Part shown: piece after piece, positions 1 to 40,968 of the stretch
Position numbering within the stretch: position 1 is the stretch's first letter
Layout of the letters: every line of letters begins with the position of its first letter
Assembly: GCA_017513195.1 (NCBI GenBank)
Contig: JAFXGM010000023.1
Span: forward strand, 1 to 40,968
DNA: 40,968 nt
Direction of reading: 5' to 3'
Source of the DNA: Clostridia bacterium
Lineage (GTDB): Bacteria; Bacillota; Clostridia; Oscillospirales; Acutalibacteraceae
Position numbers and translations under genes: made by a program
Notes under the pieces: generated by a model
The model's database searches: none
What the model was told of the DNA's origin: nothing
What the model saw: the letters and a program-made list of their open reading frames with translations, nothing else

Positions 1-141
1 GCCACGCCCTGCCGTTGCTTTCTGGGTTAGTCAAGACTTGTTCTGTTGCTATCTGCCATTCAGTTACAACTCTTTGCATATACTCACGGCATATCTTTTC
101 ATCGCTCAAACATTCAATCGCTTTTTGTATGCGGTCTTCAC
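1..141. repeat. Terminal direct repeat, left copy (circular contig overlap)
   Basis: These 141 bases are identical to the last 141 bases of the window (40828-40968). The repeat lies inside one continuous reading frame that only becomes complete when the ends are joined. The simplest reading is an assembly overlap of a circular or circularly permuted molecule, giving a unique length of 40,827 bp. A genuine short terminal repeat is less likely, because the end falls inside a gene and far from the terminase genes. Confidence 0.93.
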
Positions 142-24932: not shown

Positions 24933-25296
24933 TTTTCTCACCTTTTTCCTTTCTCTTTTTAATTATCAAATAAGGAATTAACCATAACGGAAGTGTGCCA
25001 TAAACAATGATTGCTATTACCCATTCCGCTACGAACTCGCCCAAAGTTTCAACCATATCAAGAAAATTGTTTGCACTGTCTTTTACATTTTCATAGACAT
25101 AATCTAATAGTGTCATTCTTTTGGTTATTCTTTTAGCCCTGTTTGTTTCATATTCTCGCATTCGATTTTCATCGTTTTTAGCCTTTATGATTTTATCGTT
25201 TCTCTCGTCAAGTTCTTTGCGAAACGCTTTGTATTTCTCACATTCAGCGTGGCAGTGTAAATGACGGTCTTCGCACTGGTAACAACAATTATTCAT
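24916..25296 (-). CDS. Cys/His-rich membrane protein, unknown
   Basis: 126 aa. The N-terminus has NNCCYQCEDRHLHCHAEC, with six Cys and three His in under 20 residues, typical of metal binding. A charged helix (about 20-60) precedes one or two hydrophobic segments (VAEWVIAIIVYGTLPLWLIPYLI) and a basic tail. The layout suggests a membrane-anchored metalloprotein with a cytoplasmic zinc head. The start overlaps the radical SAM stop by 8 nt. No family is recognised; pairing with the radical SAM gene is notable. Confidence 0.7.
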   Translation of the reverse strand: MNNCCYQCEDRHLHCHAECEKYKAFRKELDERNDKIIKAKNDENRMREYETNRAKRITKRMTLLDYVYENVKDSANNFLDMVETLGEFVAEWVIAIIVYGTLPLWLIPYLIIKKRKEKGEKNENIS

Positions 25297-26257
25297 TTGT
25301 AGTCCTCGAAATTAACGCATTACCGCAAGTAATTCTGTCACTGTCCTCTTCTTCACTGGGTACAAAAACAATTACTTCCCAACCCTCATCAAGTAAAGGT
25401 TGCTCAAATTTACGGTAAACATCATAGTCGGTGTATTCGGTTGTTATTCCAAAACCGTTTTTTACGGCTGAATTTGTTTTGTGAATAGGCGTGATTTTTA
25501 CAATGAATTTCTCTTTTTCAAAAAGTCTTGATAACTCTTTTGCATCAAGTATAGTATCGCCTGTTACCGCAAAATTAAGTGTGTACTTTCTGCCTTTTGG
25601 CATAGGTAACATTTTTGCTATTTTTGAAATTTCTTTAAGCGACTTGCTTCGTCCGTCAAATTGTTCGTTTCTCTGTTGTTCGTCTGTTGAGTTAATGCTA
25701 AATTGCAACCCTGCCTCGCCACCGTAAACCTCGTTTTTAATCCTGCACCATTCAAGCAAAAAGCGTTTAAGTCCTCTGTGTGCTTTTGGCAGCATTGTCG
25801 ATACAACGGGGTGTATGGTTTCAGCGGAAATATACTCGTTGACAATTTCCCTCAATCTTTCCTCTGTAAAGTCTAATACCGCACAGTTGAATGTAGGCTC
25901 GCCCATTCTTGCATAATGAACATTAAAGCGTTCTGTACTTTTAACTGTTTCATTTTGCAAAATTGTTCTTATTTGATATTCAAGGTCATCAAGATATGCG
26001 TTACCGTAAAAGCCAAATTTATGGCAATCGCAAAACTTACATTTCATAAAACAACCTTTTTGAGTGCTGATAGTGGCAACCCACTTTTTACTCAAATCGA
26101 CATTATGATGCTTAACGCCTTTAATTTCTTTATGTAATCCCAGAAACTCCGCTTTTATATTATTCTCTTTTCCGTAATCACCTACGGTCAAAAATTCAAG
26201 TCTTCTGTCACGGTCAACATATATCTTTCCTGTATGTGTATGTACTATTTCAATCAT
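25289..26257 (-). CDS. RlmN/Cfr-like radical SAM protein
   Basis: 322 aa. The 4Fe-4S motif CFMKCKFC (Cys69, Cys73, Cys76) follows ISTQKG, matching the VSSQxGC region of RlmN. RMGEP (about 117-121), FSINS (SLHA in RlmN), and VTGDTILDAKE (VN-DSxE region) follow in the RlmN order. The C-terminus DRITCGNAL aligns with the AACGQL motif, so the methyl-carrying Cys (Cys311 here) is present. The second catalytic Cys, seven residues before the first cluster Cys in RlmN (Cys118 in E. coli), is Thr62. The N-terminal RNA-binding domain of RlmN is replaced by about 60 unrelated residues. The substrate is therefore unknown: RNA, DNA or another molecule. Confidence 0.85.
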   Translation of the reverse strand: MIEIVHTHTGKIYVDRDRRLEFLTVGDYGKENNIKAEFLGLHKEIKGVKHHNVDLSKKWVATISTQKGCFMKCKFCDCHKFGFYGNAYLDDLEYQIRTILQNETVKSTERFNVHYARMGEPTFNCAVLDFTEERLREIVNEYISAETIHPVVSTMLPKAHRGLKRFLLEWCRIKNEVYGGEAGLQFSINSTDEQQRNEQFDGRSKSLKEISKIAKMLPMPKGRKYTLNFAVTGDTILDAKELSRLFEKEKFIVKITPIHKTNSAVKNGFGITTEYTDYDVYRKFEQPLLDEGWEVIVFVPSEEEDSDRITCGNALISRTTNE

Positions 26258-26270
26258 TTTCTTTTACCTC

Positions 26271-26936
26271 TTATACATTGAAGTGTGATAAATCAATATC
26301 ACTGCTTTTTTCTGCCTTTGCTTTTTTACCAGAAAAGCCGTTCCGTTCCCAAGTGCGTACCGCTGCTTTCCAGTCTTTCATTTTGTTTTTACCTACTAAC
26401 CAACCGTTAGAGGTGTAGTAATCAATAAAGTGTTCAGCATCAACATTGTTGTTTCTTTCAATGCAATATGCTTTGACTTCTTCAAGAGTGGGCGGTGAAA
26501 ATCGCTTTGCGGTTTTCTTTATATCCTTATCTTCCTCTAACTCTATCTCTATACTATCTCTAACCTGTGTATCCGTTATGTATCCATTTTGGATACAATC
26601 CGTATATGCTTTGTTATCTTTTTCAAGTAACTGTGCTTTTTCCTCTTGGTAGATAGTAGGTTTATAACGGTCTTTTTGTATGTAGTTGTGAATTTTCCAG
26701 TGCTTAATTACAATTACGCCACTTTCAAATGTGATAATAAATCGCTTTAATATAAGCAGCTTGCAATCATCGTCACTTGCCCCGACCATTCGTTGTATCT
26801 TTTTGGGGTTATTTATAAACCCGTCATCGTCTGCCCTCATTGATAAATGAAAATATAACGCCTGTGCCGATAACGGCATATCAAGAAAAGCATCACTATC
26901 AATTATTGTCTTTGCAAACATTCGTCTTTCAGCCAT
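26271..26936 (-). CDS. Replisome organizer (DnaD-type N-terminal domain)
   Basis: About 221 aa from the ATG at 26936 with AGGAAG upstream. The N-terminal winged-helix pattern (RRMFAKTIIDSDAFLDMPLSAQ ... RADDDGFINNPKKIQRM) is common to phage replisome organizers; a DnaD-like C-terminal helical part follows (SPPTLEEVKAYCIERNNNVD). It binds the phage origin and recruits the DnaC-like loader. An origin may lie within or near this gene, as in many phages, but I saw no clear iterons. It overlaps the GIY-YIG gene by 8 nt. Confidence 0.85.
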   Translation of the reverse strand: MAERRMFAKTIIDSDAFLDMPLSAQALYFHLSMRADDDGFINNPKKIQRMVGASDDDCKLLILKRFIITFESGVIVIKHWKIHNYIQKDRYKPTIYQEEKAQLLEKDNKAYTDCIQNGYITDTQVRDSIEIELEEDKDIKKTAKRFSPPTLEEVKAYCIERNNNVDAEHFIDYYTSNGWLVGKNKMKDWKAAVRTWERNGFSGKKAKAEKSSDIDLSHFNV

Positions 26937-27759
26937 TGGTTTCACTTCCTAATAGGTTTAATTGTTGCCATTGTTCTTTCGTTTCTATAACGCCTTTGGT
27001 ACACGCTATATTAAGCGACTTTTCGGGATTTTCTTTGTAATACTTTTGAATATAGTATTTTTCTCTTTCAAGAATATTTGCAGTTATAGGTACAATTTCA
27101 ATCACTTCAAATTGATAATCTAAAATACCTTTCATATCAAATCTATCTGTTTTAAGGTGTTGCCCCCAACGGAATATAGGTAGATAGATTGTTTGTCCTA
27201 TATAAAATTCCCCTGTTGATTTTTTACTAATTTTATAGATATAACCTGCAATATCATCACGCTTAAAATCTTCTCTTGTGATAAAACTTTCATCAACCAA
27301 CCCGTCCGCAAGACATTTTTGGCGTTCTCTTTTTATAAAATGTGATTTGCAATTATAAGAACAAAAACGCAAATTTTCATACTTGTCTAATTGGTTGCAT
27401 AAGTCATTCTTTATTTCCCAATCTTTTAATATTTCGCATTTATCAATATAGCCCACCACTTTACTACCGCAACAAGCACAGGTATATTCAATTCGATTGA
27501 AATACCTTTCCGTGTTGTAACAATGTTCTGCTATGATAATGCAATACAAATCACCTGTATTTAATTTCTTTGAATTGCGAAAAGATATATTGTCACCATA
27601 TTCATCTTTTATCAATTCTTTGAAATGCTCTCTGCTTTCACATATCTTACAATCCATAGTTAGTTCTATGTTGTTTGATACGCCCCAAAAAACACACCCC
27701 TTTTCTGGTGGGTTTTCGTGGTCTGCAACCTCATATATTCTATATATTATTTCAACCAT
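26929..27759 (-). CDS. GIY-YIG endonuclease
   Basis: 276 aa. GYIYK (172-176), FYIGQT (185-190), Arg198 and a catalytic-type Glu near 231-233 form the GIY-YIG core in the C-terminal third. A Cys-rich zinc module (Cys94, Cys96/97, Cys133, Cys137) lies before it. Free-standing GIY-YIG proteins are often homing endonucleases or recombination nucleases. It has a consensus promoter and a structured 106-nt leader of its own, unlike its neighbours. Start: ATG with AAAAGGAAAAAAT upstream. Confidence 0.88.
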   Translation of the reverse strand: MVEIIYRIYEVADHENPPEKGCVFWGVSNNIELTMDCKICESREHFKELIKDEYGDNISFRNSKKLNTGDLYCIIIAEHCYNTERYFNRIEYTCACCGSKVVGYIDKCEILKDWEIKNDLCNQLDKYENLRFCSYNCKSHFIKRERQKCLADGLVDESFITREDFKRDDIAGYIYKISKKSTGEFYIGQTIYLPIFRWGQHLKTDRFDMKGILDYQFEVIEIVPITANILEREKYYIQKYYKENPEKSLNIACTKGVIETKEQWQQLNLLGSETNG

Positions 27760-27779
27760 TATTTTTTCCTTTTCTAAAC

Positions 27780-27885
27780 AAAAAGCGTACCGTATGGAGT
27801 GTAAGCGGCACTCTCATACAATACGCCAGTGATAACAATATTCCGTTTTATCGTGAAACGATACCGCTTATATCGTTACCACTCT
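27780..27885 (-). ncRNA. Structured RNA leader/small RNA with intrinsic terminator and loop-loop pairing
   Basis: On the - strand, from the expected start near 27885: helix P1 (AGTGGTAACGATA 27883-27871 with TATTGTTATCACT 27840-27828; 13 pairs, two of them G-U). Inside it is hairpin P2 (TATCGT 27863-27858 / ACGATA 27854-27849). Terminator hairpin P3 follows one base after P1 (GCGTA / GTATG / GAGTG with CACTC / CATAC / TACGC; 27826-27785), with a T-run 27784-27780. The P3 loop CCGCTTA (27808-27802) is perfectly complementary to TAAGCGG (27870-27864) in the P1 interior, a 7-bp pseudoknot. An alternative hairpin AACGATA (27877-27871)/TATCGTT (27863-27857) would compete with P1 and P2. This may be an attenuator for the GIY-YIG gene or a small RNA. 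No Rfam match can be stated. Confidence 0.75.
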
Positions 27886-27891
27886 TGGAAC

Positions 27892-27920
27892 ATTATACCA
27901 ATATAATTTTGAATTGTCAA
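27892..27920 (-). promoter_or_regulatory. Consensus sigma-A promoter for the leader RNA and GIY-YIG operon
   Basis: On the - strand, TTGACA (27920-27915), 17 bp, TATAAT (27897-27892): both hexamers perfect with optimal spacing. It is the strongest promoter visible in the window and should be active without phage factors, possibly even in the lysogen. Confidence 0.9.
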
Positions 27921-27945
27921 TAATGTTTTGCAATTATTGTATAAC

Positions 27946-27962
27946 GCTTCATTATGACACAT
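27946..27962 (-). repeat. 17-bp early-region repeat, copy 2
   Basis: ATGTGTCATAATGAAGC on the - strand, overlapping the last codons and stop of the 110-aa gene at 27952. It lies 26 bp upstream of the consensus promoter. Match to the other copies is high, with one or two changes. Confidence 0.75.
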
Positions 27963-28284
27963 TATGTGCAACGGCAAATGCCTTGAATACTTCTTCCTTT
28001 TCGGCTCTCACTTTCTCAACTTCTGCCTTTGCTTTCAGTTCTGGGTGTTCTGCCTGTATTTTTTGTCTTGCCCTGCGTACAGTTTCAAAGTATGGAAAAT
28101 GCAACTGTTTAACATTACATAAGAAATAATCAACGGTCATTTCTTTTAAGTTAATCGGTGTTTCCTGCTTCGCTGCTACTCGTTCAAGCACTTTCAAATA
28201 CAAGTAACTGTCACTGTTTCGGGTGTCTGGAATGTCCGTCAACACTTCTTTAACAATATGTGATACTTTTATAAGTCCGTTCAT
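27952..28284 (-). CDS. Unknown protein, 110 aa
   Basis: The start ATG at 28284 overlaps the stop of the preceding gene (ATGA) and has AAAGGTGG upstream. The protein is helical with charged C-terminus (RRARQKIQAEHPELKAKAEVEKVRAEKEEVF; longer run abbreviated as RRARQKIQ ... EVEKVRAEKEEVF). Family unknown; common in phage recombination regions by position only. Confidence 0.65.
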   Translation of the reverse strand: MNGLIKVSHIVKEVLTDIPDTRNSDSYLYLKVLERVAAKQETPINLKEMTVDYFLCNVKQLHFPYFETVRRARQKIQAEHPELKAKAEVEKVRAEKEEVFKAFAVAHNVS

Positions 28285-28634
28285 TTGCCGTTCCACCTTT
28301 CTGCTTCAAAGCCTTTATAAATCGTCATAAAGTCTTCAAATTCCATAGTTACGAGAATATTGCAATTATTCTTTTTGTGGAATACAACAGGCAATAAGCC
28401 TTTACCGTTTGCGGTGGCATCTCTTTTCGCCTGTTCTACCCATTTATACAACTGCATTTGCTCTTGGTGTTTTGCTTCAATATGAATGTACGGTAAACCT
28501 ACAACATCGGAAGCATCGCCAGTATTACCGCAATATTGAGCCGTCCTGCGTGCGTTATTGTACCCGTGTTCACGGAATTTTGAAGCAAGTAACCGTTCAA
28601 ACCTTGCACCTTTTTGTTTGCTATTTACCGCCAT
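28281..28634 (-). CDS. PD-(D/E)XK-type nuclease, Holliday junction resolvase-like
   Basis: 117 aa. KGARFERLLASKF (N-terminal Glu), GDASDVVGLPYIHIEAKH (catalytic D-x(10)-ExK-like) and a downstream lysine/glutamine helix match the phage endonuclease/Hjc-like fold. Role: cutting branched intermediates in recombination or during packaging. The position next to SSB supports this. It starts with ATG at 28634, after the SSB stop. Confidence 0.78.
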   Translation of the reverse strand: MAVNSKQKGARFERLLASKFREHGYNNARRTAQYCGNTGDASDVVGLPYIHIEAKHQEQMQLYKWVEQAKRDATANGKGLLPVVFHKKNNCNILVTMEFEDFMTIYKGFEAERWNGK

Positions 28635-29361: not shown

Positions 29362-29937
29362 TTACACCTCTGCGTATTCCCACAAAAAACCTTTGTGATA
29401 GTTTCTTTTACCTTTACAACATTCGGCAATATCGGCGATATTAAAACCGTCTTTTTTAGCTGCTGAAATACTTGCATAATGTACTTTTTCGCCTGTTTTA
29501 ATATTTGTGCGAATAACGGCTTTGCTTTTACTTGTCCCGCTTTGTTGTGCGTACCATTCCTTTGAGAAACGCATTCGATTTGATTTAATCGCAAACTTTA
29601 TGTTTTCGCTTTGTGTCACCCACTCCAAATTATTGGAATTATTATTTTTGGGGTTACAATCTTTGTGATTTACGATGTTGCAATTTGGCTTTTGAGGGCA
29701 AAATGCGGTTGCTACCAGCCTATGTACAAAAAACCTATTTTTGTTTCCGTTTTTGTCTATCAATATCACCCTGTAATAACCTGCTGAATTAACAGACGGT
29801 TTCAAAATCATTTCTTCATACATAAGCATTTTATTATTTTTAGTTAATATTCGCCGTTGCAACTTTTTCACATTTCCCAGATTGCTGACTTGATATAAGC
29901 CCTTATAACCTTTAATATCTCGCCAAATTTCACTCAC
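29362..29937 (-). CDS. NUMOD4-HNH endonuclease (homing type)
   Basis: 191 aa. NUMOD4 motif IWRDIKGYKGLYQVSNLG at the N-terminus; HNH core VHRLVATAFCP, NIVNHKDCNPKNNNSNNLEW in the middle; NUMOD1-type DNA-binding module (ASISAAKKDGFNIADIAECCKGK) at the C-terminus. Such proteins are free-standing homing endonucleases. It overlaps the upstream gene by 4 nt, so insertion next to an essential gene is likely. Confidence 0.92.
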   Translation of the reverse strand: MSEIWRDIKGYKGLYQVSNLGNVKKLQRRILTKNNKMLMYEEMILKPSVNSAGYYRVILIDKNGNKNRFFVHRLVATAFCPQKPNCNIVNHKDCNPKNNNSNNLEWVTQSENIKFAIKSNRMRFSKEWYAQQSGTSKSKAVIRTNIKTGEKVHYASISAAKKDGFNIADIAECCKGKRNYHKGFLWEYAEV

Positions 29938-30464
29938 TCATTATCACCCCATAAACTCTTTAATCTTGCAATTTCATCGGGCGTTTGCGTTTCAATCCCC
30001 AATGCCTTTGCTTCGTCAACAATTCCGTCAATGAATATTGACATTTCCAATGTGTCAAATTCGCTGCTACCTTTATACACCTTGTAATGCTTAAATAAAG
30101 TGCCGTTCAAGGTGCTTTCGCCTGCTTCTTCGCAATACTTCACATATTCGGTAATTGGTATATGTGCTTTAACGCTTATCATTTCACTTTGCCCGTATCG
30201 TTTGAGCATTAAAAAGTAAGCATCTTCTTTGTTCATTCGCAGAACATTGCCGATTTCGGTTAAGAGTTTCCAAGCATAATTGTTAGCATTCAGCGACCTT
30301 TTTTCTCGGTACTTATCAATCTTGAATGATAGTTTTTCAATGGTTGACAGTTCATCAAACATATTCAATGCCGATTGCTTTTCGTTGATTTTAAGCGTTA
30401 ATATCGGCTCGCCTGTCTGGAAGTCAAGAGATAACCCCGTCATTTTGCCCGTGAGTTCATACAT
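29934..30464 (-). CDS. NinB/Orf-like recombination mediator candidate
   Basis: 176 aa. EKRSLNANNYAWKLLTEIGN with LRMNKEDAYFLMLKRYG is the segment seen in many Firmicutes phage proteins similar to NinB/Orf. C-terminal TPDEIARLKSLWGD is also typical. The position between a C5 methyltransferase and HNH supports a recombination/repair role. The assignment to NinB is tentative. Confidence 0.55.
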   Translation of the reverse strand: MYELTGKMTGLSLDFQTGEPILTLKINEKQSALNMFDELSTIEKLSFKIDKYREKRSLNANNYAWKLLTEIGNVLRMNKEDAYFLMLKRYGQSEMISVKAHIPITEYVKYCEEAGESTLNGTLFKHYKVYKGSSEFDTLEMSIFIDGIVDEAKALGIETQTPDEIARLKSLWGDNE

Positions 30465-34079: not shown

Positions 34080-34095
34080 GAGAACTTATGTTCTC
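34080..34095 (-). terminator. Leader hairpin with T-run (attenuator candidate)
   Basis: On the - strand GAGAAC-ATAA-GTTCTC is followed by ATTTTTT. It lies between the early promoter (34112-34139) and the Cro-like gene, so it can act as a leaky terminator controlling early gene expression. Confidence 0.6.
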
Positions 34096-39422: not shown

Positions 39423-40634
39423 CTATTCTGCAAATATGCCCCATTCGTTACGCTTGTTTTTTATTCGTTCAATGTACTTTGTATATGCACTCTGTTTTGT
39501 AGGGGAAAAGCCCAAGCCCTTGCACCAGTAATCATTACGCAAGAGTGTACGGCAAATTCTACGCCAACTCGGTACATCTCGTTTCTTTTCCATTTGCGGG
39601 TCTGCTTCGTCTGGTATTCCGTCTTCGTACCCTCTGTCCATATACCACTTGATATAAACCGCAATTTTTGACTTGTAGTGTTCTGCGGTCTTTTTCGGCA
39701 TAGTGTCAAGCAGGTATTTTGCGAAACTTTCCCAAGTATGATTAGGCGGTAATTTGATTTTACCGTTACCGAGAATATTGCCCCTTTCGTTGCAATAGAT
39801 ATTACCGTTATTCGCACCGTTTACACGGAACACCATTTTAGCCCAAGTCTGTGGCTCTAATATTTGATACATCCACAATGACCGTCTTGTTGTATCGCCA
39901 AAAGGCTCGTCAACTCTCATTTGATGAAGTGTCAACCCTGCTTTGTAGAACTGGTCATACAATTCGTTGTAGCATTTTTTGTACTTACCGAGATATGTCC
40001 AGTCATCCTCTGCACGCCAGTCATAAATCGGGTAAACATTGTAGATATTATCAGCAACGCAAGTTGTAAACAGTTTGTCTGCAAACACATTTTTACGCTG
40101 ATTTGTCAATGCTCTGTATCGGTTAAGACTTTCTCTTGTTCGTATGCCTACAAAACAAGCAGTTCTCTCGCCGTCCCCGTACCATTCCGCAAACTTCGGC
40201 ACAAACTCTTCAAAAGTAATGTGGTAATACCAGAACGGGAAGAAGTTTTCATCGGTTATGCTCATTTCTTCGGGTTGTCTTACCCAAGCATCTTTTTTGT
40301 CTTTGTCCCAGCAAATCCACTCTGGCTCAAACTGGCTGCACGCATTGTCTGTCAACAAGGGAAGAGCAATCCAGTACGGCTCAATGTGGTCCTTATACAT
40401 CTCGTAAATGTGCTTAATATGTTCGATTGTCATTTTGTACTGTATTTCCCAGTCAATGAAAAGCAATGCAACCTTTCTGTTTCGTTTTATTGCTTCTTCC
40501 ATAACAATATGTGTCATAACGGTACTATCTTTGCCACCGCTGAAAGACACGCATATTTTGTTGAAGTTGTCAAATGTCCATTCCACACGCTTTTTAGCAG
40601 CTTCATAAACATTCATATCAAGATTTCGTATCAT
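39423..40634 (-). CDS. ibrA: IbrA-like PAPS reductase/ATP pyrophosphatase family protein (DUF3440)
   Basis: 403 aa. The N-terminal PP-loop SGGKDS (32-37) and the following alpha/beta domain match the PAPS reductase/N-type ATP pyrophosphatase family; the C-terminal segment (SWRRICRTLLRNDYWCKGLGF, about 350-375) is the DUF3440 signature of IbrA. The family binds adenylated or ATP-type substrates; the actual reaction of IbrA is unknown. The start overlaps the stop of the 145-aa protein (ATGA), and the IbrB-like gene lies one gene upstream. Related domains occur in DndC, so a role in nucleic acid modification is a reasonable but unproven idea. A sulfate assimilation role is unlikely in a phage. 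Confidence 0.88.
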   Translation of the reverse strand: MIRNLDMNVYEAAKKRVEWTFDNFNKICVSFSGGKDSTVMTHIVMEEAIKRNRKVALLFIDWEIQYKMTIEHIKHIYEMYKDHIEPYWIALPLLTDNACSQFEPEWICWDKDKKDAWVRQPEEMSITDENFFPFWYYHITFEEFVPKFAEWYGDGERTACFVGIRTRESLNRYRALTNQRKNVFADKLFTTCVADNIYNVYPIYDWRAEDDWTYLGKYKKCYNELYDQFYKAGLTLHQMRVDEPFGDTTRRSLWMYQILEPQTWAKMVFRVNGANNGNIYCNERGNILGNGKIKLPPNHTWESFAKYLLDTMPKKTAEHYKSKIAVYIKWYMDRGYEDGIPDEADPQMEKKRDVPSWRRICRTLLRNDYWCKGLGFSPTKQSAYTKYIERIKNKRNEWGIFAE

Positions 40635-40968
40635 AAGTAATCTCCTATATCGTCAAATGTCATTTGGTAATTCGGGCATTGTTTAGAAAACTTTTTCAAC
40701 CATTCGTATATGACCTCTTCGGCAATCTTGTTAGCCCTCTTTTGTACTTTGGGTGCAAGTAATACCCACGCTTTGCGGGTTTCTTCATCATAACAACCGC
40801 CGTACATAAAACAGGCACACTGACCGAGCCACGCCCTGCCGTTGCTTTCTGGGTTAGTCAAGACTTGTTCTGTTGCTATCTGCCATTCAGTTACAACTCT
40901 TTGCATATACTCACGGCATATCTTTTCATCGCTCAAACATTCAATCGCTTTTTGTATGCGGTCTTCAC
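40631..40968 (-). CDS. Conserved phage protein, C-terminal part (gene spans the circle junction)
   Basis: The C-terminal part of the ~145-aa protein that starts at position 241 in the circular genome. Its stop overlaps the IbrA-like ATG (ATGA). A TTG at 40936 can serve as a formal start in the linear window, but the frame continues upstream with an ATG and good spacing to the IbrB-like gene, so the longer form is right. GRAWLGQCACFMYGGCYDEE contains three Cys residues, and the C-terminal part is helical. No family is recognised. Confidence 0.85.
   Translation of the reverse strand, partial: EDRIQKAIECLSDEKICREYMQRVVTEWQIATEQVLTNPESNGRAWLGQCACFMYGGCYDEETRKAWVLLAPKVQKRANKIAEEVIYEWLKKFSKQCPNYQMTFDDIGDYL
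40828..40968. repeat. Terminal direct repeat, right copy (circular contig overlap)
   Basis: Identical to positions 1-141. The junction lies inside the gene between the IbrB-like and IbrA-like genes. The exact length 141 is a common largest k-mer of metagenome assemblers, so an assembly overlap is more probable than a physical repeat. Confidence 0.93.

What the first reader, a model, noticed from the sequence alone, without database searches (positions are those of the whole stretch)
27780..27885. Compact structured RNA with pseudoknot-like loop pairing and its own terminator
Seen in sequence: a perfect consensus promoter (27892-27920) is followed by a ~106-nt leader. It has a 13-bp helix (27883-27871 with 27840-27828, two G-U pairs), an internal hairpin (27863-27858 / 27854-27849), and directly after it a bulged terminator hairpin (27826-27785) with a T5 run. 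The 7-nt terminator loop CCGCTTA is the exact reverse complement of TAAGCGG in the interior of the first helix. A competing hairpin 27877-27871 / 27863-27857 uses one strand each of the helix and the inner hairpin, so two folds are mutually exclusive. This is riboswitch- or sRNA-like architecture before a GIY-YIG nuclease, and I know no named class that it matches.
Basis: partly seen in the sequence, partly recalled or inferred. Interest (0 to 1): 0.85.

Follow-up and report, generated by a model that had tools for sequence, protein, structure and literature searches.

The report
Phage RNA switch with kissing loops
A phage carries a short folded RNA that ends in a stop signal for transcription, placed in front of genes for copying its DNA; two of its loops are exact partners of each other, and versions with quite different sequences in other phages keep that partnership, so it is probably a new kind of control switch.

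Summary
The minus strand at 27885-27780 is the most stable 106-nt fold sampled in the window (z -7.4). It has a perfect promoter at its 5' end, an intrinsic terminator at its 3' end, and no Rfam match.

The "competing hairpin" has the 7-nt loop UAAGCGG, the exact partner of the 7-nt terminator loop CCGCUUA. A search blind to sequence, for a terminator whose loop is fully complementary to an upstream hairpin loop, found four independent elements in 6.80 million strand-bases. All lie upstream of a phage DnaD-like helicase-loader gene. Three have other loop pairs (GUUGCGG/CCGCAAC, GAGUCAG/CUGACUC, GGUCAAG/CUUGACC): 28 of 28 Watson-Crick pairs, six of seven columns covarying. 400 shuffled sets of the dnaD-upstream regions gave one hit in all.

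The conserved partner is therefore the helicase-loader operon, not the GIY-YIG gene, which sits between RNA and dnaD in the window. Only 11-20 nt separate the U-tract from the next start codon, so those genes probably need readthrough of this terminator. Best reading: a new attenuator-type leader RNA, a "kissing terminator", controlling phage replication genes. Whether the loops pair in cis or between molecules is inferred, not shown. The element is rare among dnaD loci.

The parts
27892..27920 (-). sigma-70-type promoter TTGACA-17-TATAAT with TG before the -10 box
   Evidence: 12 of 12 matches, best of 82 in the scanned 20 kb; 6 nt between the -10 box and 27885
27780..27885 (-). structured RNA, about 106 nt, from the predicted start to the end of the U-tract
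   Evidence: MFE -45.7, z -7.39; lowest-energy 106-nt stretch of 20,432 sampled in the window; no Rfam match at gathering score
27871..27883 (-). 5' strand of the 13-bp outer helix (state 1)
   Evidence: fold; helix keeps pairing with changes on both sides in 6 of 14 pairs against L049/L050
27828..27840 (-). 3' strand of the 13-bp outer helix
27857..27877 (-). alternative 5' hairpin (state 2): stem AACGATA/TATCGTT, 7-nt loop TAAGCGG; probably forms first during transcription
   Evidence: a hairpin at this place is in the MFE fold of the first 28-52 nt (drawn with a 5-nt loop because of one extra U-G pair), replaced by the outer helix at 56 nt and more; same position in L049
27864..27870 (-). 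kissing sequence 1, UAAGCGG
   Evidence: exact partner of 27802-27808; the pairing is kept in four independent members, 28 of 28 Watson-Crick pairs
27849..27863 (-). inner hairpin TATCGT-TTC-ACGATA inside the outer helix
   Evidence: MFE fold
27784..27827 (-). terminator hairpin, 13 bp + 1-nt bulge + 5 bp apical stem, 7-nt loop
   Evidence: -24.8 kcal/mol alone; 3 of 5 apical pairs changed on both sides in L049/L050
27802..27808 (-). kissing sequence 2, terminator loop CCGCUUA
27780..27784 (-). U-tract (T5) of the intrinsic terminator
   Evidence: sequence; ends 20 nt before the next ATG
26929..27759 (-). GIY-YIG homing-type endonuclease ORF, lying between the RNA and dnaD; its end overlaps the dnaD start by 8 nt
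   Evidence: Pfam GIY-YIG E 5e-8, PHROG homing endonuclease; a homologue in L002 has no RNA upstream
26271..26936 (-). DnaD-like helicase loader, the conserved downstream partner of the RNA in other phages
   Evidence: phrog_8489 E 3e-73; element upstream of homologues in L049/L050, L255, L262

Best explanation
This is a cis-acting leader RNA that decides how much transcription passes into the phage's helicase-loader (dnaD-like) operon. A promoter starts transcription near the foot of the first helix, and an intrinsic terminator ends most transcripts after about 106 nt (promoter and terminator are visible in the sequence; their activity is inferred). The terminator's 7-nt loop is built to pair with a 7-nt loop displayed by the upstream hairpin; the complementarity and its covariation are shown, the pairing itself is not. 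Proposed mechanism (inferred): if the upstream loop catches the terminator-loop sequence as it leaves RNA polymerase, closing the adjacent 17-18 bp terminator stem is hindered and polymerase reads on into dnaD. If the upstream loop is masked (in the window and L049 by the competing 13-bp outer helix) or already occupied, the terminator closes and replication genes stay low.
For: Position: in four independent elements the hairpin + terminator stands on the sense strand upstream of dnaD (directly in L049/L050 and L255; one small ORF away in L262; the GIY-YIG ORF in between in the window). The U-tract ends 20, 14, 13 and 11 nt before the next start codon (window, L049, L255, L262). A promoter hardly fits there, so readthrough should be needed to express that gene. 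Complementarity: 28 of 28 WC pairs, 6 of 7 columns covary. Strict descriptor: 9 hits in 6.80 M strand-bases of 423 sources, all copies of these four elements; one hit in all among 400 shuffled sets of 183 regions (0 in the earlier run on 160 regions). Bistability: in both the window and L049 one strand (nt 10-15) can pair with nt 23-28 (kissing hairpin) or with the 3' strand of the outer helix; the three strands differ between the two. The outer helix and terminator covary: 15 of 40 pairs change on both sides, 96.5% of cells paired, against at most 3 pairs in slid controls (the alignment A2 was fitted to the model's structure, and two of its three rows are near twins). Two dnaD relatives without the RNA have a TTGACA-17-TATAAT promoter about 60 nt upstream of dnaD (L416; L417, read by eye) and a third about 200 nt upstream (L318).
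Against: No expression data. The kissing does not touch the terminator stem itself, so anti-termination rests on a steric argument. Outer-helix masking is seen in only two of the four (window, L049); L255 and L262 show a plain long hairpin. Promoters are clear only in the window (12/12) and L049 (10/12); L255 (score 8.5) and L262 (8.0) do not exceed the 90th percentile of background, 8.5. The element is absent from most dnaD loci: 5 of 183 distinct upstream regions carry it, window, L049 and its near twin L050 included, and 14 orf114 relatives have none next to orf114. In helix 4 two basal pairs of the window are not formed in L049/L050. A promoter overlapping the hairpins themselves cannot be excluded.
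Confidence: 0.5

Rival explanations
1. Trans feedback / copy sensing: the short terminated RNA acts on new copies of its own leader. Each molecule carries both partner loops, so two molecules can dock as a closed pair (loop 1 of one with loop 2 of the other, twice). RNA concentration, and so phage copy number, would then set termination before the replication gene, without an antisense strand.
For: Loop sequences differ between phages while complementarity is kept, as expected for self-recognition rather than a fixed outside target. 0-4 nt (7 nt in one fold of L255) between the two long stems makes pairing inside one finished molecule sterically hard (folds; geometry inferred). The 5' end lies close to the helix base in the window and, if their weak promoters are real, in L255 and L262. 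RepA_N plasmids use a small RNA whose terminator hairpin is also its putative kissing loop to control repA (PMC8129170, abstract and passages).
Against: No evidence of RNA abundance or dimers. In those plasmids the regulator is antisense, and here no antisense promoter rises above background (best scores 7.5-8.0).
Confidence: 0.25
2. Stand-alone small RNA with other targets (host or phage mRNAs, or a protein), placed by chance before dnaD.
For: Promoter, folded body and terminator fill about 106 nt with nothing left over.
Against: Other members are unlike in sequence but keep the place before dnaD and lie 11-20 nt from the next start codon; the loops are not conserved as sequence, so a shared external target is unlikely.
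Confidence: 0.13
3. DNA-level structure (cruciform or single-stranded hairpins) acting as replication origin or protein site next to the helicase loader.
For: Sits beside a replication gene; 27849-27863 is an inverted repeat with perfect 6-bp arms around 3 nt.
Against: 5-9 G-U pairs per element, and the sense strand folds much better than the antisense (-45.7 vs -33.0; -45.3 vs -25.3; -41.1 vs -29.5; -47.3 vs -24.1); a U-tract follows the second hairpin in all four.
Confidence: 0.05
4. Ordinary operon terminator plus promoter, loop match by chance.
For: Several dnaD relatives have plain terminators just upstream (L305-L307, L312, L317).
Against: Four independent perfect 7/7 matches at one genomic place, against one hit in 400 shuffled sets of 183 regions.
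Confidence: 0.03

Closest known systems
RepA_N plasmid copy control (pSA564/pSK41/pSK1: repA 5' UTR ON/OFF structures and antisense RNA1)
   Same: Leader with two exclusive folds and a terminator before a replication-initiator gene; a short RNA whose terminator hairpin doubles as a putative kissing loop (PMC8129170, abstract and passages seen).
   Different: There the kissing partner is an antisense RNA from the other strand; here both partner loops lie in one sense transcript, no antisense promoter stands out, and the setting is a phage helicase-loader operon.
ColE1 RNA I/RNA II loop kissing (recalled)
   Same: 7-nt loops that pair fully.
   Different: ColE1 pairs sense with antisense and acts on a replication primer; here it is one RNA with a terminator.
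OLE, ROOL and GOLLD RNA-only homo-oligomers (PMC12286853, abstract and passages seen)
   Same: ROOL and GOLLD are phage/prophage-encoded; kissing loops and other contacts hold copies of the same RNA together.
   Different: Far larger and much more elaborate; no Rfam match here; oligomerisation of this RNA is untested.
Purine and guanidine-II riboswitches (recalled; starts of abstracts in the listing)
   Same: Two hairpins whose loops interact, linked in places to transcription termination.
   Different: No conserved sequence core or ligand pocket seen; the loop sequence itself is not conserved; one of the loops belongs to the terminator.
Racr RNA anti-CRISPRs (PMC10651486, start of abstract seen in the listing)
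   Same: Small phage non-coding RNA.
   Different: Those mimic CRISPR repeats; I did not search for CRISPR repeats in the host or compare the RNA with any.

Membership tests
Any Rfam 15 family | match at or above the gathering score | tested here: not met
   0 matches in the window and 0 in loci L049, L255, L262; best weak match over 27740-27930 is salivarius-1, 23.2 bits vs cut-off 50, on the + strand of the promoter
Transcription attenuator (leader terminator before a gene) | intrinsic terminator between a promoter and the start codon, no room for another promoter | tested here: met
   terminator -20.3 to -26.7 kcal/mol and U-tract in four members; 11-20 nt to the next start codon; but an upstream promoter is clear in only two of four
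Transcription attenuator (leader terminator before a gene) | regulated change between termination and readthrough | not testable with these tools
   two exclusive folds predicted for the window and L049, none measured
Kissing-loop RNA | two hairpin loops fully complementary, kept by covariation | tested here: met
   7 of 7 pairs in each of four independent members, 6 of 7 columns vary
RepA_N-type antisense copy control | antisense RNA from the opposite strand over the leader | tested here: inconclusive
   no antisense promoter above background near any of the four elements; a promoter scan only, no transcript data
Riboswitch | conserved ligand-binding core | tested here: not met
   no conserved sequence core: pairwise RNA identity 0.49-0.59 vs shuffled 0.48-0.51; ligand binding not tested
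   1 homologue examined (L002, 79% identity): an ORF and no such RNA upstream

The most novel reading that the evidence does not exclude
A self-kissing terminator: a phage leader RNA that serves as its own antisense. Its two partner loops let finished copies dock with each other and with new transcripts, so that RNA concentration measures phage copy number and sets termination in front of the helicase-loader gene.
Probability: 0.22. Interest if true: 0.88.

Novelty: new variant of a known kind. Interest (0 to 1): 0.74.

Why it matters
It would be a new design of transcription attenuator, recognised by geometry (terminator loop = partner of an upstream loop) rather than by sequence, and so hard for sequence-based RNA searches: the single-sequence covariance model missed L049 with default filters and found it only unfiltered (27.3 bits). 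It puts an RNA switch directly in front of the step that loads the phage replicative helicase, a control point in the temperate phage cycle. The simple descriptor used here can be run on all phage genomes.

Tried and rejected
Nucleotide homology: blastn against phages and plasmids gave no match. In 99 related genomes, blastn at E <= 1 gave only short local matches besides the window; I looked at ten of those loci and saw no such RNA. Single-sequence covariance model R1: nothing but the window itself in 70 genus genomes; three weak hits besides the window in 391 class genomes: L038 and L040, nearly alike, match in the terminator hairpin only and no ORF of 60 aa spans them; L039 lies inside a 357-aa ORF. 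R1 found nothing at E <= 1 in 50 whole virus records and nothing at E <= 5 in 60 and 63 loci; in 46 further loci, which included L038-L040, it added only L139 (E 1.9). R1 with default filters also missed L049, so these negatives are weak. Relatives of orf114 (14 loci) first made me think the RNA was a lone insertion; this was wrong, because the partner is dnaD. A cI-type operator reading of TATCGTTTCACGATA was dropped: every other match in the window has 3 mismatches. An exact-pattern scan of viral contigs found 0. The genome-contig scan with the resolvase gave one locus (58% identity), and no such RNA was seen in the 2 kb read. Looser kissing criteria (6 of 7, G-U allowed) gave no further convincing member upstream of dnaD; L353 has a large terminator before dnaD with a different layout. 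Seven phage records were fetched around dnaD: none carries the element. The DnaD-like loci of the class (18 of 391 genomes positive, own included), phylum (6 of 398, own included) and order (20 of 394, own included) samples hold no strict element other than the window's. Papers: (seven searches of the held open-access library) listed nothing that I recognised as such an element; subscription papers are not covered. Corrections made on checking: the strict scan missed L049 because it used only the first TTTT after the loop; one search repeats it with every TTTT, on more loci, and there one shuffled region in 400 sets of 183 passes (none in 400 sets of 160).

Full report
WHAT WAS CHECKED. It has a 141-base direct terminal repeat, a serine-recombinase integrase, a repressor-like gene, Erf/RecE recombination genes, SSB and a DnaD-like loader, so it is most likely a circular or circularised temperate phage. 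The RNA lies on the minus strand, in the direction of the long gene row, between orf114 (27952-28296) and a GIY-YIG ORF (26929-27759) whose end overlaps the start of dnaD (26271-26936).

The fold is -45.7 kcal/mol, z -7.39, 0 of 200 shuffles as good. Among 20,432 stretches of 106 nt (every 4 nt, both strands) it is the most stable. The promoter is a perfect 12/12 and the best of 82 in the 20 kb scanned. Rfam gives nothing at gathering score; the best weak match is to the promoter's other strand.

THE KEY DETAIL. Both loops are 7 nt and are exact partners. For growing transcripts a hairpin at this place is in the best fold from 28 to 52 nt (drawn with a 5-nt loop because one more U-G pair can form); the outer helix takes over at 56 nt. 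In the outer-helix fold the same 7 nt lie mostly in the 5' side of the internal loop.

RELATIVES BY SHAPE, NOT SEQUENCE. Blastn and a one-sequence covariance model found no relative. I therefore searched the fetched phage loci for a hairpin with a 7-nt loop followed by a hairpin with the exact complementary loop. The first scan (4.57 M strand-bases) gave four hits outside the window; two, in near-identical contigs L049 and L050, lie directly upstream of a dnaD homologue, with the same 62-nt loop spacing and the pair GTTGCGG/CCGCAAC; the other two (L165, L204) I took as chance. The model run without filters then scored L049 at 27.3 bits, E 6e-5 on 18.5 kb. A relaxed scan over more loci added L262 (GGTCAAG/CTTGACC) and L255 (GAGTCAG/CTGACTC), again upstream of dnaD. 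That scan listed the best 25 of 60 hits; the rest of those seen were not perfect 7/7 terminators before dnaD and are taken as chance.

STATISTICS. A strict version (loops of 6, 7 or 8 nt tried, full complementarity, stems of at least 5, terminator <= -14 kcal/mol with T4, upstream fold <= -10) over 423 sources, 6.80 M strand-bases with overlaps between loci, gave nine hits. All are copies of four independent elements: window, L049/L050 (also fetched as L222, L321, L322), L255 (= L319) and L262. All have 7-nt loops and all are on the sense strand upstream of dnaD. Of 183 distinct dnaD-upstream regions (300 nt each) five carry one (window, L049, L050, L255, L262); 400 dinucleotide-shuffled sets of these regions gave one hit in all. 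The locus set is enriched in dnaD neighbourhoods because dnaD was one bait, but the 300 nt before dnaD in the 291 dnaD loci are only about 1% of the bases scanned. Across the four, 28 of 28 loop-loop pairs are Watson-Crick and 6 of 7 positions change. On window + L049 + L050 (two of them near twins, alignment fitted to the model's structure), the stems keep 96.5% of cells paired, with 15 of 40 pairs changed on both sides, against at most 3 in slid controls and a mean of 5.3 in shuffles. Overall RNA identity between the four (0.49-0.59) is near the shuffled level (0.48-0.51), while the first 140 residues of the DnaD-like proteins are 63-78% identical.

RESULTS AGAINST. The element is rare. 14 of 182 distinct upstream regions (window not counted) have at least 100 nt without an ORF before dnaD, and of these only L049, L050 and L255 carry the element; L262 carries it one ORF further up. 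The 14 orf114 relatives examined, some of them near-duplicates, have no such RNA next to orf114. No DnaD-like locus from the 391 class, 398 phylum and 394 order genomes sampled carries a strict element except the window (scan 106), nor do seven phage records read around dnaD. Besides the window the members are all IMG/VR virus contigs. Promoters are convincing in the window and L049 only.

HOW IT PROBABLY WORKS. Shown: a terminator stands 11-20 nt before the next start codon in all four, so a promoter hardly fits in between and the downstream gene should need readthrough; the terminator's loop is the covarying complement of an upstream loop. The functional molecule is most likely the sense RNA: each element has 5-9 G-U pairs and the sense strand folds about 12 to 23 kcal/mol better than the antisense. 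Inferred: the two long stems are separated by 0-4 nt (7 nt in one of two folds of L255), so a full loop-loop helix inside one completed molecule is sterically awkward. Two arrangements avoid this. (i) The upstream loop captures the terminator-loop sequence while the terminator's 3' arm is not yet made, which would delay termination and let polymerase pass into dnaD. (ii) Two molecules dock head to head, each loop 1 with the other's loop 2. The second makes the RNA its own antisense and would give copy-number feedback as in plasmids. I rate cis attenuation at 0.5 and trans feedback at 0.25.

COMPARISON. The nearest precedent seen is RepA_N plasmid control, where the repA leader has ON/OFF folds and a small antisense RNA whose terminator hairpin is also its putative kissing loop (PMC8129170, abstract and passages). 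The phage element has similar parts, but both partner loops are in one sense transcript. Kissing loops that help hold copies of one RNA together are known in the far larger OLE/ROOL/GOLLD RNAs (PMC12286853, abstract and passages). The structured-RNA surveys PMC2864571 and PMC8040213 were searched for phage, pseudoknot, kissing and replication (passages only); 'kissing' does not occur in the main text of either, and no such element before a helicase loader was in the passages shown. Seven library searches listed no paper that I recognised as describing it.

THE GIY-YIG GENE. It is most simply read as a homing endonuclease that landed between the RNA and dnaD: its homologue in L002 has no such RNA upstream, and the other members of the RNA stand 13-14 nt before dnaD (L049, L255) or 11 nt before a small ORF (L262), without a GIY-YIG-sized ORF between RNA and dnaD.

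Noticed in passing
window 1-141 and 40828-40968: Exact 141-base direct repeat at the two ends: the contig is probably a complete circular (or circularly permuted) phage genome.
   Followed up: partly
window 34081-34094: AGAACTTATGTTCT, with the GAAC-N4-GTTC core of Gram-positive LexA boxes (recalled), beside the leftward promoter TTGAAA-16-TATAAT (34139-34112) of the lytic side; suggests SOS control. It has 2 mismatches to the pattern searched, and matches of that quality are not more frequent than chance in the window.
   Followed up: partly
window 25289-26257 (-): Radical-SAM protein of phrog_24834 with weak similarity to RlmN/Cfr family models, far below their cut-offs; homologues up to 77% identical in 67 virus loci, several on contigs over 100 kb. 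Function unknown.
   Followed up: partly
window 39423-40634 (-): Protein with similarity to PAPS-reductase and DndC models, below all their cut-offs.
   Followed up: no
L316, L409, L416, L417, L422: DnaD-like homologues in prokaryote genomes with one or two in-frame stop codons counted by the search (TGA, TAG or TAA); could be stop-codon recoding in prophages or decay.
   Followed up: no
L353, 132 nt upstream of dnaD: A large branched terminator-like structure directly before dnaD whose inner 7-nt loop CTAAAAA is A-rich and could face the U-tract; possibly another leader design for the same gene.
   Followed up: no
L305, L306, L307, L312, L317: Simple terminators with 8-9-nt loops directly upstream of dnaD in genome loci: plain terminators before this gene also occur.
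   Followed up: partly
window 29934-30464 and 29362-29937 (-): NinB-like recombination mediator followed by an HNH endonuclease; the phage carries two homing-type nucleases (HNH and GIY-YIG) in its replication module.
   Followed up: no
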